The notes beneath the pieces were generated by a model that was not told the origin of the DNA, ran no database searches, and saw nothing but the letters and a program-made list of their open reading frames with translations. The position numbers were made by a program, and so were the translations under genes. 64,000 bases of DNA from Plasmodiophora brassicae (lineage: Eukaryota; Endomyxa; Phytomyxea; Plasmodiophorida; Plasmodiophoridae): positions 248,001 to 312,000 of the forward strand of contig JASFAU010000003.1 in NCBI GenBank assembly GCA_039704465.1, written 5' to 3'. Of this stretch, positions 25,951-35,905 are shown in pieces (positions within the stretch are counted from its first letter, which is position 1; each line of letters opens with the position of its first letter).

Positions 25951-26918
25951 TTACTGAGGACTGGGCGCGACTCTACGATTGACGAGAACCTGTTGACTGG
26001 GTGTACTCTTGCGCTCGACATATTGCCCAAAGAAGTTCCTGAACTCAGCAGGCATCCATTTGGTGGAGCACAGGAACAGTACCAGCACGTTGACGAGCAT
26101 GTCGATTAGGCCGCACAGCTCCCCCAGGATGGCCCACGAGGTCAGCCAATCCACAACGGCGACGTTGACGACCAGATAGATGGTGAAAGTCGTAACCGTG
26201 CAGCCCAGCGCTACAATGGACGACACCGCGTTCTTGATGGCCATCCTGTAGAGCGTTTCAGGCGAATAACCAGTATTGTTGGTCATTGGCTGTAATTCAC
26301 GACGTCGTCTGGACACTTCGACGACCGCCCAATGGAACCTCGATACCAGGATTCCGCTGACAACGATTGAAGCCGTGTCAAATAGAGCGAATACTGATGT
26401 GGGTCCTGATAAAATGCACACAGCACCCGGGAAGACCATCGTCCCATGTATGACGGGCATAATGCCGAACGCCACAGGGATGATACCGATGATGCCGAGT
26501 TGCATCACCTTGACGAACAGTGATTCGGAAGCGTCCGGCTGGACACATTTCAGTCGTTCAAGCAGGAATTGGAGCACGAACGTAAACTCCCATGCATCTA
26601 CCAGCAGAACGTATCAGACACGATGTCGTTGGCCGTGCAACTGGAGTTCCTACAGAAAAATGATGTAGCCTTGCCGTTCAGTTCACACCATAGCGGGTTC
26701 ATATCGGGCGTCCATGGTACCGAGTACTCTAGGAGAATGCTCGTGGAGGAGATTGTGGCAAACAGCGATGCCGCGAACTGGCACCTGAGCACGCCGTTGG
26801 CCTTGCGTAGGCCCGTTCTCCAGACAGTGACAGAAACGCAGGCAAGCAGGGCGAATTGTACCGACACCAGTGCCGCGGACACAGCTGATGCGACTTGAAC
26901 GACGAACTCGGATTCCAT
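25951..26918 (-). CDS. seven-helix membrane protein, copy A
   Basis: Exon 1 is 26654-26918, starting MESEFVVQVASAV; a 56-base intron (26598-26653) joins in phase to exon 2, 26597-25951. The spliced product of about 305 residues has about seven hydrophobic helices: SAALVSVQFALLACVSVTVW, LRCQFAASLFATISS, the helix spanning the splice (FFYAWEFTFVLQFLL), VMQLGIIGIIPVAFGIMPVI, SVFALFDTASIVVSGILV, IVALGCTVTTFTIYLVVNVA and LCGLIDMLVNVLVLFLCS, followed by a basic tail. The topology suits a GPCR-like receptor or transporter, but I recognise no diagnostic receptor motif. The paralogue in copy B is nearly identical, including the intron position. Confidence 0.7.
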
Positions 26919-27654: not shown

Positions 27655-28622
27655 TTAATGAAGACTGGGCGCGACTCTACGATTGGCCTGAACCTGTTGA
27701 CTGGGTGTACCCTTGCGCTGGACATATTGCCCAAAGAAGTTCCTGAACTCAGCAGGCATCCATTTGATGGAACACATGAACAGTACCAGCACGTTGACGA
27801 GCATGTCGATTAGGCCGCACAGCTCCGCCACGATGGCCCATGAGGTCAGCCGATCCACAACGGCGACGTTGACGACCAGATAGATGGTGAACGTCGTAAC
27901 CGTGCAACTCATCGCTACAATGGACGACACCGCGTTCCTGGTAGCCATCCTGTAGAGCGATTCGGGCGAATAACCGGTATTGTTGGTCACTGGCTGTAAT
28001 TCACGACGTCGTCTGGACACTTCGACGACCGCCCAATGGAACCTCGATATCAGGATTCCGCTGACAACGATTGAAGCCGTGTCAAATAGAGCAAATACTG
28101 ACGTGGGCGCTGACGCAATGCACACGGCACCAGGGAAGACCATCGTCCCACGTATGACGGGCATAATGCCGAATGCCACAGGGATGATACCGATAATGCC
28201 GAGTTGCAACACCTTGACGACCAGTGATTGGGCAGCGTCCGGCTGGACACACTTCAGTCGTTCAAGCAGGAATTGGAGCACGAACGTGAACTCCCATGCA
28301 TCTGCAAGCAGAACGTATCAGACACGATGTCGTTGGCCGTGCCACTGGAGTTCGTACAGAAAAATGGTGTGGCCCTGCTGTTCAGTTCACACCATAGCGG
28401 GTTCATATCGGGCGTCCAAGGTACCGAGTACTGTAGGAGAATGCTCGTAGAGGAGATTGTGGCAAACAGCGACGCCCCGAACTGGCACCTGAGCACGCCG
28501 GTGGCCTTGCGCAGGCCCGTTCTCCAGACTGTGACAGAAACGCAAACAAGCAGGGCGAATTGTACCGACACCAGTGGTGCGGACACAGCTGAGGCGATTT
28601 GAGCGACGAACTCGAATTCCAT
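27655..28622 (-). CDS. seven-helix membrane protein, copy B
   Basis: Paralogue of the gene in the first duplicated unit. Exon 1 is 28358-28622 (MEFEFVAQIASAV), a 56-base intron (28302-28357; donor GTACGA, acceptor TTGCAG) sits at the identical codon, and exon 2 runs 28301-27655. Differences from copy A are mostly conservative (for example SAPLVSVQ against SAALVSVQ, QSLVVKVLQ against ESLFVKVMQ), and all hydrophobic helices are kept open, so both copies look functional. The function is unknown. Confidence 0.7.
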
Positions 28623-29794: not shown

Positions 29795-32700
29795 ATGGCG
29801 TCCATGGCGCCCGCCGACGACCACGTCCTGCTGGAGAAGGTCCGCGCGCTGGATGACATCCCGGTCTTCGCGTCGGGAGCCAACATCGAGACCGCGTCCA
29901 TATCGATTGCGGTCGATCCCATCGGTATGCGTTGACCATGCGGATGTCTCGTATTGGTCCGAACTGACCAGGTCGTGTTAGTGCCGCCGTCGAAGACGTA
30001 CCTCGATATCCGAGCATATGAAACGCCGTTCACAGAGGTCACCCTCCTTGTCGGCTTGCCTTCGCGTGCGTTCTGACAGGACGTCCCACGCAGGAGGTCG
30101 AGAACCTAACAGCGCTGTATGAGGTTTTCGAGGAGAGCAACCGGTTCATTTCAATGATCTACTCCTACCGGTTCGGCCTTACTGTCTAACCGTTTGGCAT
30201 GCTCTGCTGACCGTGCTCGGAATTTAACAGGAGTTGCTCAAAAGCGCTGCCGATGATGAAGAATGAAGTAGATGACGAAGCACGCAAAGACATCCATCAT
30301 CGGTATGGCAGGACGTCCACTGGAGTCAGCGCGGCAGCAAGTCTGACGTTTCGCTCTAGAACGTTCGCGGTTCTGCGTCCCGAAATTGCCAAACTGCACG
30401 AATTTTCGGCCTTTCACGAGAGGGCGATCGCTGTCTTCATTCGCACCTACAGGCAAATGGTACGGAGCGGCACCTGTTCTTGCCGCGGCTGGCCGCTGAT
30501 TTGGGACAGGTGCAACCCGCGTCCAAGAACGAGGTGTGCAGCGACGAGCACATCCGCATGCTTCAGAAAGTGATCGACAGGCTAGCGATACTGGATTCCC
30601 TGAAGGACATGAAGGCCTGTTTCCAGAATGATTTCGCGCGATATAAGGTAAATACGTGTACCCCTTCGCTATGTCGACACCCTCTGACGTTTGTTTCTGC
30701 AGCGGTCGTTCTCCAATATCAGGGCGGAAATCCCAGATTCTGATTCCATTGCCGATGACATTCACAATCTGCAAATGTTCTTGGGCAACCCGCAGCATCC
30801 CAATGACCTCATCATCACTCACCTGAGAACGGAGATTCAAAAGATCTCTGGCTATCAGGAGGTCCTTATTCTGATCGCCGACGATGCGCTCGCTGCGCTG
30901 AACAGGAAGATGTATATGCTAGCGGACGAGAAGCATATGCTGTTACGTGTGCTGATCAATACCGTGTTTCTGTTTGACGGCGAAACGAAAAATACGGCAA
31001 ACGCTTTCAAGGCTAAACGCTTCCAGATAGAAGCGATCAGACAGGTCTTCCGCGGATATCAATACCTTCCCCTGTTTGGTGATATGGTACTCTTGTTTCG
31101 CTCTGTCCGATTCCCCGCGTTCGTCTGAGGCGTATCGTGTAGCACCTCAACATCAAGTTCGTGTTGCGGCGATGCTGCAATTACGATGAAGCGAAAATGG
31201 AAAGCCAGTGGATCGGCGGTGATATGGGACACTTCCTGCTCATCAACCAAAGGCAGTCGATTCAGGCTGAGTACAATTTATTCACCAACACGTTCCTGCA
31301 GGTAACGATCGCTGTCATTTTATTTGGGTTCCGTGCCTAACGCTTGTTCGGACCAGGTTCTGAACTCAGTCAAAGCCCGGGCGCAAGGTCACGATGACTC
31401 GCCAATGGACCGGGCGACAGGGCGTGAAGTCTTCGACCGCGTTGTTGACGGGTTTCGATTAATGTCGAAATGGCATGCTGCGATCAAAGAGCAATCCGCG
31501 TTCAAACGGGCAAATCCAGTTGATCCTAAGACAATTCCGGTGCTGGCGTTCTTCATGAACGTGCTGTTATATTTACTGATGTCTTCGATTTCTTGGTCTC
31601 AGGGCCTCGGAGGTGTCGAAGGGAACGGGTTCAACTTCGAATGCGTTGACAGATACAACTATTCCAAGGCGGAGCTGACGGTCCTTAGCGATGTTCTTAG
31701 CATGCTCAAAGGTGTCGCTGCTTCGCATAGGTTGTTGCTGTGAGCTCACCTTTTTCAGGGGTCGGTCTCATGCTTCGCGATTCCGAGACATACGTCGGGC
31801 CTGTAATCAGGCGCGCAATGCATGATGAATTGCAGGAATACCTCCAGACAACGCTATCTAGGCCTCTTCGCAAAGCCTACAAACGAGGTTAACGGGAAGC
31901 GCCCTGGTCGTTGCTTGTGTTCTCTGAATGCGCCCCCAGGACGTGACGAAGTGCGCCAAGCTATGTGCCTTATGCGGTCTATTGGTGCCGATTGGGCTCC
32001 AGACGCCACACAATCCCTCGATTACAAGACCCGCTCGAAGAACATGAAGAACGCATCTCACGATTTTCCCAAGCGCTGCGTTCAGCCCTCGACTACCCAA
32101 CTCTTCCTCATCAGGTGGGATTGTCCTATTCACGCCCCCATATAATCTAAACTGTTGCTAGGCGTCTATCTCTTCAGGTTTTCTCTGAAAAGTCGAAAGG
32201 GATGCAGGGGGGCATGTTCACCGAGAAAGACATCCAGAAAGACCAGCTCCCAGACTTTGAGCGCTTCTATGAAAGGACGTTCTTCTACCCATACGTCCTG
32301 GACTTCAAAGCAACGCTTGATGCTTGTACCGATATGAGCGACTTGTGGTTTAGGGAGTTCTATCTGGAGATCACGAAGGTCTGATGGGATTTCGTCAGTG
32401 TATGCGCGCTGAACTCATGGAATTGTGTCCTGAAACAGTGCGTCCAATTTCCGATCTCCATGTCGCTTCCGTTCTTGCTGGCCGAGCACGTTATTTCTGT
32501 GCCTGCCATATCCGACAACCTGTTCTTCTGCGTGGACATTTACAATGATGCTGCTTCTCGGGCACTCACTCAAATGAAACAGCAGTTCCTGTTTCGCGAA
32601 ATAGAAGCTGAGCTGAATCTTGCATTCAACACTCTTGTCAGTCGTTTATTCCGATGTGTGGCAATGCAGTAACTAATAACGACGCAGGTTTACACTCTCG

Positions 32701-35700
32701 CGATGAATGTGTTCACATGTTTCAAAGGCATTGCGTCTGCGATCCTTCTTGACCATGACCAAAAACAGGTGCTTGAACAACGAACGAGGTGCTGGCGTAA
32801 ATATGACCCAACCGCTTCGGGGTACTTCACCGCAACGTTTGCTTTTGCGTCTCAAATCTAATCATCTTAAGGTATATCGCGCTTCTTGAACAACGCGACG
32901 TCCGTCTTCTTGGTCGTTCAGTTGATCTACGGCGGCTGCTAGCACAGCACATCAATGGCTATTTCAGGTTGTTGGCAATGTTGCAAAGTTGAATCTACTT
33001 TCCATCATCTTACACACGTAACACGTCGTAGGCAGAACGTGGATATGGCCATTGCGCGTTTTGAAAGCAGCGATTTGACGTCCATTGTCGAGCTCAAGTC
33101 TATACTCGAGCAGACGGAACTGGCGCATCGGCTGCTTGCGGAGCACCTGACACTGGACCCGTACGAGACGATATTCAGTGAGGTCAACGAGAACACACGA
33201 TTTGCGCCTTTCCGTGGCCGCATCGTTGTTCACGTGTTTTCCGAACTTGTCGCTGATGTCTTTCCAAACTTCTGTTTCGATACGCCGATGCAATTGTTCA
33301 ACCGCGGCCCTGTGTCTTTCGTTGAACCGCCTCCTCGTGATTCGATGCCGCCGTTTATGTCGCAGTTCTGGTATACGGCCCGATTCAACAAAGCGTTCAC
33401 CGATGCTCTCAAAGTGTCGCGCGAGTACTTTGGCAATGAGCACATTCAGGCCGTTCTCAATTTGATTGATGTGGAGGACCTTACGACGCTTTTCGACCAG
33501 TTGTGCTCTTCAATGGAGGATAAGGTCCGAATGGCCACTGAATGAATGGGATGGCGGTTGACTTGTTCCCCAGGTGAACTACGTCTTTGCATCGTACGCG
33601 AAGGTGTTGATGGATTCGATGGATCCTATCAAACTTCCATCGCTCAAGTATGGTGTCATCGGCGGGTACGGTTACTTTGACCTGAAGCTCAAGCCTCTGG
33701 CCGCGTACGATAACCTACGGTCCCAACTGTTTCAGATCTTGAGGGAAATTGTATGTTCCGCTGTGCACTATGGCAGTTGCATGCACGTTAACCAACCGGA
33801 TCGTAGGGCAATTCTCTGGCTTTCATTCACCAGTTGTCTCTCGCCCTGTGTGAAAGCAACCTCTGGGATTTCAACATCGCTTCCCAGTTCATGGGAATCT
33901 CTGCTGATGCCAATGGTAAGCTCGTCCAGGTAGCGGAAGCATCGGTACTCCCCATCTTCGACAAACTGTCACGCGACATGTCCCTGCCAGCGAATTTAAG
34001 AACATGCGCGCAGCAGGTCAGCTCAGTGCATATGTAAGATGTATCCCTGTTTGATACTTGCCACAGACATGTGCACTGCTGGGGGGATTCAGCTCCAGAG
34101 TGGAGACTCCCCTGCTGACAGTCTGCCTTGACCGGCTGTACGCCAGCATTCAAAAATCGAATGCCCTGGGGGAGTGGCTCGGTAAGCCTGCTACCAATGG
34201 AGTTCTGGATCTGGAGACGCCTCGAGACTTGTGCCGGCTCTGGTCGGCCATGCAGTTCATATTCCTCACGCCAACACCTGAGCAGATTGAGGGCACGAAG
34301 CTGTCGGACAAGCAAACATTTGGTGATGGGTTTTCATGGGCTGGTGTCACCCTTCTTCATATCTGCGGATTCCGTTCGCGATTCGAAGCGCTAGACTTCG
34401 TCTACTACATTCTTCGCATGCAGATGATCGCTCCGACGAACTTGTTCGTCGACGTCAAGAAGACCAAGAAATCCAAGCTGACGCCTGAACAAGAGGTTCG
34501 TTCGTTACGCCCGACAGCTACCGTTTGGTTTTGGTCTAACCATCTTGAATCAGTTATTCCCGTTTGTGAAACGGATACTTGAGGAAGGCTCTAGCATCAA
34601 GCTTCTCAACAGCTACATCTTCTCGATCTGCGAAGCCCATATCGAGAGCCCTAATCAGCGCCCTGTTGTGATGCTCCGCCCGGATCAAGACGTGTCTGTA
34701 AACGCCAGTGATACTGCTTGTAAGCCATACGGGACGGTCTTGCATATCATCTCATTCTAAATGTGTGTATCCAGCTCGCAGGGTCAGTAGCAATGTGACG
34801 GTTGCACCTCCTGGTGCTATGCCACCTCAAAAGCAGTCGATCGCTGCCTCCCAGATCGGCTCCATGCCGTCAGGGTTCGTTGCACCCCCTGCTCCACCTG
34901 CTCCTATTCCTCCGCCTGTCGCTCCGCAACCAGCATTGCGTCAACCAGTACGGCCACCTCCACCGAACGCTCAATCCACGGCACCGCCTCCACCACCGCC
35001 ACCGCCCCAGGTCGTCGCTGGGCCTCCTTCATTACCGACTGCTGTGCCACCGCCGCCGCCTCCTCCTCCGCTTCCATCATCTGTTGATTTGTCGGCAGGT
35101 AGTAACGCCCCACCAGGTGGTCCCCCACCTCCGGCTCCATTAGCTGGTAGAATGCCCCCTCCATCAAGGCCTCCCATCGCTGGTCGTCACCCGCCTCCGC
35201 CTCCCCCTCCTGTTACTGGAGCGCCACCGCCGCCTTCACCGACTCAGGTGCGAAACCCTCCACCTCCGATAACTCGAGGTGTTCCTCCTCCTCCTCCACC
35301 TGCAACTGGACTGCCGCGACCACCAGTGATTGGCTCAGGGCTTCCGCCACCACCCCCTCCCCTTGCTCGTTCTGGTCCTGCTCCGCCACCCCCACCAATG
35401 GTCAGTGCCGTTCCACCTCCTCCACCGCCACCATTGGCGGGAGGGATGCCACCGCCACCTCCTCCGTTGGGTGGAGTTGCTCGGCATCCTCCTCCGCCTC
35501 CCTTAGCGTCAGCACCGCCACCACCTCCTCCACCTTTGGGCGGCGGTGCGCCTCCGCCTCCGCCTCCTCCGCCTGCTTTGGGCGGGGCGCCTCCGCCCCC
35601 GCCTCCTCCGCCGGCTTTGGGCGGAGCGCCTCCGCCTCCGCCACCACCATCGAACGCGTCTGCTCCACCGCCCTTGTCGAATGCATCAGGTTCGTCGACG

Positions 35701-35905
35701 TGTTTGTAATTGTCACGCGGCACCTGAGTCCCTCTTTGCAGGTGACGACGCTCGGTCAGAGTTGATGGCTGCCATCCGTGCAGGAAAGAAGCTGTCGAAG
35801 ACGTCCGTGCCTGCAAGCGAGGCAGTGTCTGCACCCAAGCCGCCTCCTGCTCGAAAGCCCATGAGCATGATGGAGGAGCTCGCGATGAGACAGCGCAAGA
35901 AATAA
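29795..35905 (+). CDS. CYFIP/Sra-1 (SCAR/WAVE complex) fused to a polyproline-WH2 tail
   Basis: Start MASMAPADDHVLL at 29795. Short exons follow the CYFIP/Sra-1/PIR121 order: HIRMLQKVIDRLAILDSLKD; SEKHMLL-type helix; LFGDM; a YNYSKAELTVLSDVLSMLKG segment; LWFREFYLEITK; FPISMSLPFLLAEHV; IARFESSDLTSIVELKSIL and RIVVHVFSEL; then LCRLWSAMQFIF and FGDGFSWAGVTLLHI. The last CYFIP exon ends in RPVVMLRPDQDVSVNASDTA. A GT-AG intron (34720-34774, phase 1) joins it in frame to about 300 residues of polyproline (profilin/SH3/EVH1-type runs). A second intron (35690-35741, phase 1) leads to DDARSELMAAIRAGKKLSKT, a WH2 actin-binding motif, then MMEELAMRQRKK and the stop. CYFIP is the Rac1-binding subunit that holds the SCAR VCA tail. 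No acidic Arp2/3-binding end is visible. That the tail is one gene rests on these two junctions. Confidence 0.8.

What the first reader, a model, noticed from the sequence alone, without database searches (positions are those of the whole stretch)
29795..35905. CYFIP/Sra-1 apparently fused to a polyproline-WH2 tail
The CYFIP reading frame ends in the expected terminal segment and then, through one clean GT-AG intron (34720-34774), continues in phase into about 300 residues of polyproline; a second phase-matched intron (35690-35741) adds a WH2 motif (SELMAAIRAGKKLSKT). In known SCAR/WAVE complexes, CYFIP/Sra-1 is a separate subunit that holds down the WH2-containing tail of SCAR. A single chain with the inhibitor-type subunit and an actin-binding tail would be a novel wiring of actin regulation. 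No Arp2/3-binding acidic end is visible, so the tail might deliver actin or profilin-actin rather than activate Arp2/3.
Basis: partly seen in the sequence, partly recalled or inferred. Interest (0 to 1): 0.92.

Follow-up and report, generated by a model that had tools for sequence, protein, structure and literature searches.

The report
WAVE-complex subunit with actin-binding tail
In this single-celled eukaryote's genome, the gene for CYFIP, a scaffold protein of an actin-controlling machine, appears to run on into a long proline-rich tail ending in a small actin-binding motif, so the scaffold itself could feed actin to growing filaments; the proline tail turns out to be common in protist relatives, the actin-binding end was seen only here.

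Summary
A 23-exon GT-AG gene model at 29795-35905 gives 1625 residues: full-length CYFIP (1-1266), about 300 residues of FH1-like polyproline, then a WH2 motif and a basic end. Splice signals at the CYFIP/tail join are average for this gene and not decisive; those before the WH2 exon score above the gene's 20 CYFIP introns. Stronger support is comparative: 29 of 118 CYFIP relatives have a proline-rich tail, including the query's sister in the tree, named as a transcript assembly. So the polyproline tail is ordinary for protist CYFIPs; the WH2 is not (0 of 50 scanned relatives). The genome also keeps two separate SCAR/WAVE-like genes with WH2-C-A ends, Nap1, an HSPC300 candidate, WASP, profilin and ARPC2, so the tail adds to the WAVE complex and does not replace SCAR. 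Best reading: an extra, probably ungated arm that collects profilin-actin and actin for nearby filament ends. No RNA from this organism was available. New variant of a known kind, less radical than first proposed.

The parts
29795..34719 (+). Exons 1-21: CYFIP/Sra-1 body, residues 1-1266 (20 GT-AG introns of 47-83 bp inside)
   Evidence: Gene model; Pfam FragX_IP and CYRIA-B_Rac1-bd; human CYFIP1 3p8c_A E 7.6e-88 and 2.5e-103 for the two halves
34720..34774 (+). Intron 21 that joins CYFIP to the tail (55 bp, GTAAGC...TATCCAG, phase 1)
   Evidence: score about equal to the gene's median intron, best of 8 in-frame joins considered, reached by 4.9% of window GT-AG pairs
34775..35689 (+). Exon 22: linker and polyproline, 305 residues, 46% Pro, 13 runs of 5-8 prolines, FH1-like repeats such as GGAPPPPPPPPALGG
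   Evidence: 39-bp tandem array at 35515-35648
35690..35741 (+). Intron 22 (52 bp, phase 1), splice score above the 20 CYFIP introns; if retained, the frame stops at 35709 and leaves a polyproline-only tail
   Evidence: ORF 34702-35709
35742..35905 (+). Exon 23: WH2 motif (RSELMAAIRAGKKLSKT; Pfam match at 35741-35818), short linker, methionine-rich basic end MSMMEELAMRQRKK, stop 35903-35905

Best explanation
The gene encodes the only CYFIP found in this genome. It assembles with Nap1, SCAR, HSPC300 and presumably an unrecognised Abi into a WAVE complex whose CYFIP carries its own flexible actin-feeding arm. The polyproline recruits profilin-actin, the terminal WH2 binds an actin monomer (or caps and tethers barbed ends when empty), and together they raise the local supply of actin to filaments made by Arp2/3 at the membrane. 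The arm has no acidic Arp2/3-binding end, so it elongates and tethers rather than nucleates. By analogy with human WRC, where the Sra1 C-terminus lies near the distal (D) Rac1 site, away from the VCA-sequestering site, the arm is probably exposed even in the inhibited complex, so its activity is gated by recruitment of the complex and not by VCA release. Shown: reading frame, domains, tail composition, presence of most partner genes, proline tails in relatives. Inferred: splicing, assembly, actin and profilin binding, lack of gating.
For: In-frame gene model with 22 GT-AG introns. CYFIP body and WH2 by Pfam. Human Sra1 A-site R190 and small residue C179 correspond to R192 and A181; D-site Y967 and G971 are kept (read by hand; roles of these sites from passages of PMC9481577). 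Sister in the tree, P0006, named as a Trinity transcript ORF, has CYFIP and a 114-residue, 46% proline tail in one frame; 29 of 118 relatives have such tails. Partners in the genome: Nap1, two SCAR-like genes, an HSPC300 candidate, ARPC2, profilin. One CYFIP locus found. Mechanism precedent: proline-rich plus WH2 constructs added to PWCA enhance network growth and act as polymerases (PMC5753033, abstract and passages). The Sra1 C-terminus lies near the D site, and a protein tethered there left the complex autoinhibited and locally unperturbed (PMC9481577, passages). Pir121-eGFP knock-in in Dictyostelium (PMC8700165, passages; that the tag is C-terminal is inferred from the use of the 3' UTR).
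Against: No transcript from this organism. The splice signal at the CYFIP/tail join is only average (4.9% of pairs as good). WH2 is under the Pfam cut-off when the whole protein is scored. No relative shows the WH2, so the WH2 is a single observation. Of the 14 clade mates in the tree, 7 do not pass the proline-tail test. Abi was not found (which rang in no control genome either, so uninformative). Several D-site contacts differ: R961 is K, R964 is S, E974 is G, F975 is Y, H978 is L; at the A side human E434 (a site recalled from memory) is N (by hand).
Confidence: 0.66

Rival explanations
1. Two adjacent genes: CYFIP ends at the TAA at 34758-34760 (reading on into intron 21), and a separate small polyproline-WH2 protein starts at the first ATG of that frame, 34819.
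For: The tail frame has an ATG at 34819 and would give an ordinary small WH2 protein; the join's splice score is not exceptional.
Against: Only 58 bp lie between that stop and that ATG for a 3' end, promoter and leader; the frame is open and proline-bearing upstream of the ATG (APPGA); proline tails directly on CYFIP in 29 of 118 relatives, transcript-derived records among them.
Confidence: 0.09
2. The proline tail belongs to CYFIP, but the WH2 exon is used only in some transcripts: retention of intron 22 ends the protein at 35709 as a polyproline-only CYFIP like its relatives, and splicing switches the actin-binding end on.
For: An in-frame stop lies inside intron 22 and relatives end in polyproline.
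Against: Intron 22 has the best splice score of those measured in the gene, which argues for constitutive splicing.
Confidence: 0.12
3. The tail is regulatory, not a polymerase: the CYFIP WH2 competes in cis with SCAR's WH2 for the V-binding surface of CYFIP, or the polyproline mainly binds SH3, WW or EVH1 proteins to position the complex.
For: CYFIP with the WAVE meander sequesters the WH2 of WAVE in known complexes (passages of PMC9481577 and PMC5614565); proline tracts bind SH3 proteins in general (recalled). The WH2 has the same I-x-x-G-x-x-L spacing as the first WH2 of each SCAR-like gene.
Against: In human WRC the Sra1 C-terminus lies near the D site, at the far end from the VCA site, although a 300-residue tether could reach; the tracts are FH1-like, the kind that binds profilin (recalled).
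Confidence: 0.11
4. Assembly or gene-model artefact in a GC-rich repeat region.
For: A 39-bp tandem array at 35515-35648 could be mis-sized.
Against: Repeat size errors would change tail length, not create the phase-matched join or the WH2; exon 22 is one open frame.
Confidence: 0.02

Closest known systems
CYFIP1/Sra-1 of the human WAVE regulatory complex (PDB 3p8c chain A)
   Same: Body aligned over human residues 12-631 and 591-1188, A-site arginine and D-site tyrosine/glycine kept
   Different: The human chain has 1253 residues and no polyproline or WH2 tail (recalled)
Proline-tailed protist CYFIPs, e.g. social-amoeba proteins P0012, P0018, P0020, P0030, P0039 (PirA/PIR121 by recalled name) and clade mates P0005-P0008
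   Same: Proline-rich extension after the CYFIP body
   Different: No WH2 in the 50 relatives scanned
SCAR/WAVE and WASP proteins (two SCAR-like genes and one WASP in this same genome)
   Same: Polyproline followed by WH2 near the C-terminus
   Different: They have an SHD-like N-terminus (SCAR) or WH1 and a CRIB-like stretch scoring just under the Pfam cut-off (WASP), and a C-A Arp2/3-binding end; the CYFIP tail lacks these
Ena/VASP polymerases
   Same: Proline-rich part plus WH2-like monomer binder that elongates filaments (PMC5753033, passages)
   Different: No EVH1 and no VASP_tetra match in this protein; in the genome the only WH1 match is in WASP and VASP_tetra gave none (six-frame searches that introns can defeat)

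Membership tests
CYFIP/Sra-1 (PF05994, PF07159) | Full-length FragX_IP domain | tested here: met
   698.4 bits, profile 5-885 of 886
CYFIP/Sra-1 (PF05994, PF07159) | N-terminal Rac1-binding domain with A-site arginine (human R190) | tested here: met
   CYRIA-B_Rac1-bd 37.3 bits; R192 aligns to R190 (read by hand; residue checked)
CYFIP/Sra-1 (PF05994, PF07159) | D-site residues Y967 and G971 | tested here: met
   Both identical in the alignment; neighbouring contacts R961, R964, E974, F975, H978 are not identical
WAVE regulatory complex | Partner genes Nap1, SCAR, Abi, HSPC300 in the same genome | tested here: inconclusive
   Nap1 and two SCAR-like genes found; HSPC300 candidate from a weak hit, E 0.012, supported by reading its flanks; Abi_HHR none, search without a positive control
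WASP-family nucleation-promoting factor | Polyproline plus WH2 | tested here: met
   (WH2 over cut-off only when the tail is scanned alone)
WASP-family nucleation-promoting factor | Acidic C-terminal end with tryptophan (A region) | tested here: not met
   Sequence ends MMEELAMRQRKK; last 14 residues have 4 K/R and 2 D/E, no W
WASP-family nucleation-promoting factor | N-terminal WH1 or WASH WAHD domain | tested here: not met
   No such Pfam match in the protein; the SCAR homology domain has no Pfam model that I know of (recalled) and the N-terminus here is CYFIP
Ena/VASP | EVH1 domain and VASP tetramerisation coil | tested here: not met
   Neither matched in the protein
WH2 motif | Score over the Pfam gathering cut-off | tested here: inconclusive
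   25.5 bits for the last 67 residues alone and 26.1 in the genome search, 19.9 bits in the whole protein; cut-off 23.1
WH2 motif | Actin binding | not testable with these tools
   needs protein

The most novel reading that the evidence does not exclude
In this lineage the inhibitory scaffold of the WAVE complex has become a second actin-handling subunit: CYFIP carries a built-in, constitutively exposed profilin-actin/WH2 arm at the Rac D-site end, so one complex holds two separately controlled outputs, a gated nucleation arm (SCAR VCA) and an ungated elongation and tethering arm (CYFIP), standing in for Ena/VASP proteins, which I did not find in this genome.
Probability: 0.4. Interest if true: 0.72.

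Novelty: new variant of a known kind. Interest (0 to 1): 0.52.

Why it matters
It would be a natural case in which the subunit that locks SCAR also delivers actin, which makes it possible to ask what elongation from the WAVE complex does apart from nucleation. The survey also shows that proline-rich tails on CYFIP are frequent among protist records (29 of 118 relatives), so human CYFIP, without such a tail, is not the only model for the subunit. No CYFIP with a WH2 appeared in the titles or abstract starts listed by my searches, nor in the passages read from PMC3298513 and PMC12050087; these cover only open-licence PMC papers and I did not read the listed papers through.

Tried and rejected
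SCAR replaced by the fusion: rejected, two SCAR-like genes with WH2-C-A ends exist. Proline tail as a unique fusion: rejected. The first two protein searches returned only 2 relatives each, probably because their words came from the variable first 500 residues; the third, on residues 600-840, gave 117. P0002 looked at first like a second fusion because of its short polyproline end; it has no WH2 and lies in another clade of the tree. A shared RR-x-S stretch near the junction in this protein and P0005/P0007 was seen by eye and not counted as evidence. Tail end as a C-region without A: MMEELAMRQRKK has some resemblance to a C helix by eye, not tested. Origin of the WH2: the closest WH2 pieces among the six compared are those of the coiled-coil protein L010 (score 74; 300 shuffles mean 28.5, max 54) and SCAR2 (63; shuffle max 60); too short to prove a duplication. 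Species: size and contig number (25.34 Mb, 21) resemble the Plasmodiophora brassicae e3 assembly (25.1 Mb, 20 plus 1 contigs; PMC6823432, passages), but four exact tandem copies of its TTTTAGGG telomere repeat were not found (the tool warns that it skips simple repeats), so I leave the species open. The tree puts this CYFIP in one clade with a protein labelled Cercozoa (P0008). A search for the GEZN transcriptome's source gave no paper. No structure prediction was run. One genome search and one paper search were left unused.

Full report
What is in the sequence. Exons chosen by hand from the three forward frames, with GT-AG borders and guided by recalled CYFIP sequence, give a 23-exon gene at 29795-35905 with 22 introns of 47-83 bp and a 1625-residue product. 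Pfam finds FragX_IP (698.4 bits, residues 352-1239, profile 5-885 of 886), the CYRIA/B Rac1-binding domain (37.3 bits, 58-290) and WH2 (19.9 bits in the whole protein, 25.5 bits in the last 67 residues alone, cut-off 23.1). The two overlapping halves match human CYFIP1 of the WAVE complex structures with E 7.6e-88 and 2.5e-103. The CYFIP exons end at residue 1266; then come 305 residues of exon 22, 46% proline with 13 runs of five or more prolines, and the WH2 exon.

Is the join real? A splice-site matrix from the 20 introns inside CYFIP, scored leave-one-out, gives those introns a median of 9.53 and a minimum of 2.45. The join intron scores 9.45 and is the best of the 8 in-frame joins considered (donors 34600-34755), but 4.9% of 16,491 GT-AG pairs of about 45-83 bp on both strands of the window reach it. 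The WH2 intron scores 15.82, above the 20, reached by 0.04% of pairs. The splice signals are thus compatible for the first and strong for the second. The better argument is comparative. A protein search on residues 600-840 gave 117 relatives; with P0001 there were 118. In an alignment with the query, 109 of 118 reach the C-terminal region, and 29 of 118 have at least 80 residues beyond it with at least 20% proline and a PPP run. In a quick maximum-likelihood tree of 47 of the 119 rows, picked by hand (LG+G4, SH-aLRT only), the query lies in a clade of 15 (SH-aLRT 100) with P0006 as sister (99); 7 of its 14 clade mates pass the tail test and 7 do not (P0003, P0015, P0031, P0074, P0090, P0096, P0104). 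P0006 is named as a Trinity transcript ORF, P0008 as an MMETSP record labelled taxid 136419, which is Cercozoa.

What is special. A WH2 profile made from the genome's own other WH2 motifs finds the query (i-Evalue 3.4e-5) and none of the 118 relatives at a meaningful score (next best i-Evalue 13). Pfam WH2 matched 0 of 50 relatives at E up to 1; the 50 include the 46 relatives whose tail is 60 residues or longer. Some relatives may end early because a last exon was missed, so this is a statement about the records, not the organisms. Other unusual domains do occur on CYFIPs: a WW domain in P0027 and leucine-rich repeats in one member of the first set, where P0026 shows a long extra C-terminus.

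The rest of the machinery. Six-frame searches of the genome, which take each exon apart, found one CYFIP locus, Nap1 on C18, ARPC2 on C3, profilin on C14, one WH1 match, in a WASP with two WH2 motifs and an acidic end, and 11 WH2 matches at E up to 10, 8 of them over the cut-off. Two loci, L011 and L013, read on the minus strand, begin MPIDERVV..., have a conserved basic block, polyproline, two WH2 motifs (the second in each under the cut-off), a C-like helix and an acidic DDW end. The N-terminal part of one matches WAVE1 of 3p8c with E 3.1e-4 (next unrelated hit 0.17), and its C-terminal part matches N-WASP chains weakly (E 0.004 and 0.072). Not found: Abi_HHR and WASH_WAHD (neither rang in any control genome, so this is no proof of absence) and VASP_tetra (its only control matches were in bacteria and archaea). 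SCAR is therefore a separate subunit and the CYFIP tail adds to it.

How it most likely works. In reconstituted systems, surface-bound proline-rich plus WH2 segments act as distributive polymerases: the proline part recruits profilin-actin, actin passes to the WH2, and adding PW constructs to PWCA enhances network growth; unoccupied WH2 domains tether barbed ends (PMC5753033, abstract and passages). The CYFIP tail has these two parts and no Arp2/3-binding end. In human WRC the Sra1 C-terminus is close to the D site, and a protein tethered there left the complex autoinhibited and locally unperturbed (PMC9481577, passages), while the D site is at the end of Sra1 distant from the VCA (PMC5614565, passages). 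I infer that the tail hangs free near the D site and is controlled by where the complex is recruited. The A-site arginine and the D-site tyrosine and glycine are kept, while several other D-site contacts are not, so Rac control is plausible. Actin binding, profilin binding and assembly were not tested.

Against this reading: no RNA from the organism, a borderline WH2 score in the full protein, an ordinary splice score at the join, one single instance of the WH2, half of the clade mates without a proline tail by my test, and an unfound Abi. A two-gene arrangement would need a 3' end, promoter and leader in the 58 bp between the stop at 34758-34760 and the ATG at 34819, and would have to ignore the proline tails of relatives; I give it 0.09. 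A retained intron 22 would give a WH2-less, polyproline-ended CYFIP like the relatives, which makes alternative splicing a possible switch.

Novelty. Not a new class: CYFIP and polyproline-WH2 arms are known, and proline tails on CYFIP are frequent in this survey. The combination with WH2 was not seen in the records examined or in the listings (titles and abstract starts), nor in passages of PMC3298513 and PMC12050087. The species is left open: genome size and contig count resemble Plasmodiophora brassicae e3 (PMC6823432, passages), but its telomere repeat was not found in four exact tandem copies, by a search that may skip simple repeats.

Noticed in passing
own genome C1:323259-326321, minus strand (L012): A RhoGEF (89.4 bits) plus PH domain protein ends in a WH2 motif (19.9 bits in the protein, under the cut-off; 24.1 in the genome search) and an acidic tail with tryptophan (...NEDDSEIESSAWE), as if a Rho GEF carried its own Arp2/3-activating end.
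   Followed up: partly
own genome C9:943283-946348 (L010, 754-1716 +): Coiled-coil-like part, polyproline and a WH2 close to that of the CYFIP tail (SDLMAAIRAGAKL), also followed by a methionine-rich basic stretch.
   Followed up: partly
own genome C10:441825-444899, minus strand (L009): Very proline-rich protein with two WH2-like stretches of unusual spacing (RADLLKQIASFKKNNLAK, RADLLASIRNFKPKALKS); Pfam reports one WH2 stretch.
   Followed up: no
own genome C3:1815790-1818861 and C9:873471-876533, minus strands (L011, L013): Two SCAR-like genes that share the stretch DDAYSEIKALLDRRQFLAPVD before their acidic ends while the proline regions differ.
   Followed up: partly
window 25951-26918 and 27655-28622, minus strand: Two similar ORF sets about 1.7 kb apart (MQLGIIGIIPV.../MPVIRGTMVF... 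and MESEFVVQ.../MEFEFVAQ...), upstream of the CYFIP gene, a likely tandem duplication; no Pfam match for the one of these stretches scanned, 27658-28317.
   Followed up: no
window 35515-35648: 39-bp tandem array (3.3 copies) inside the polyproline exon, a likely place for length variation between strains.
   Followed up: no
P0027 and P0026: CYFIP relatives with other extra parts: a WW domain (P0027) and a long leucine-rich C-terminus (P0026, Cavenderia fasciculata).
   Followed up: no
window gene, residue 110: The residue aligned to human Sra1 Y108 is histidine; Y108H is described as a disease hotspot change near the Rac1 A site (one search read by hand; PMC9481577 passage).
   Followed up: no
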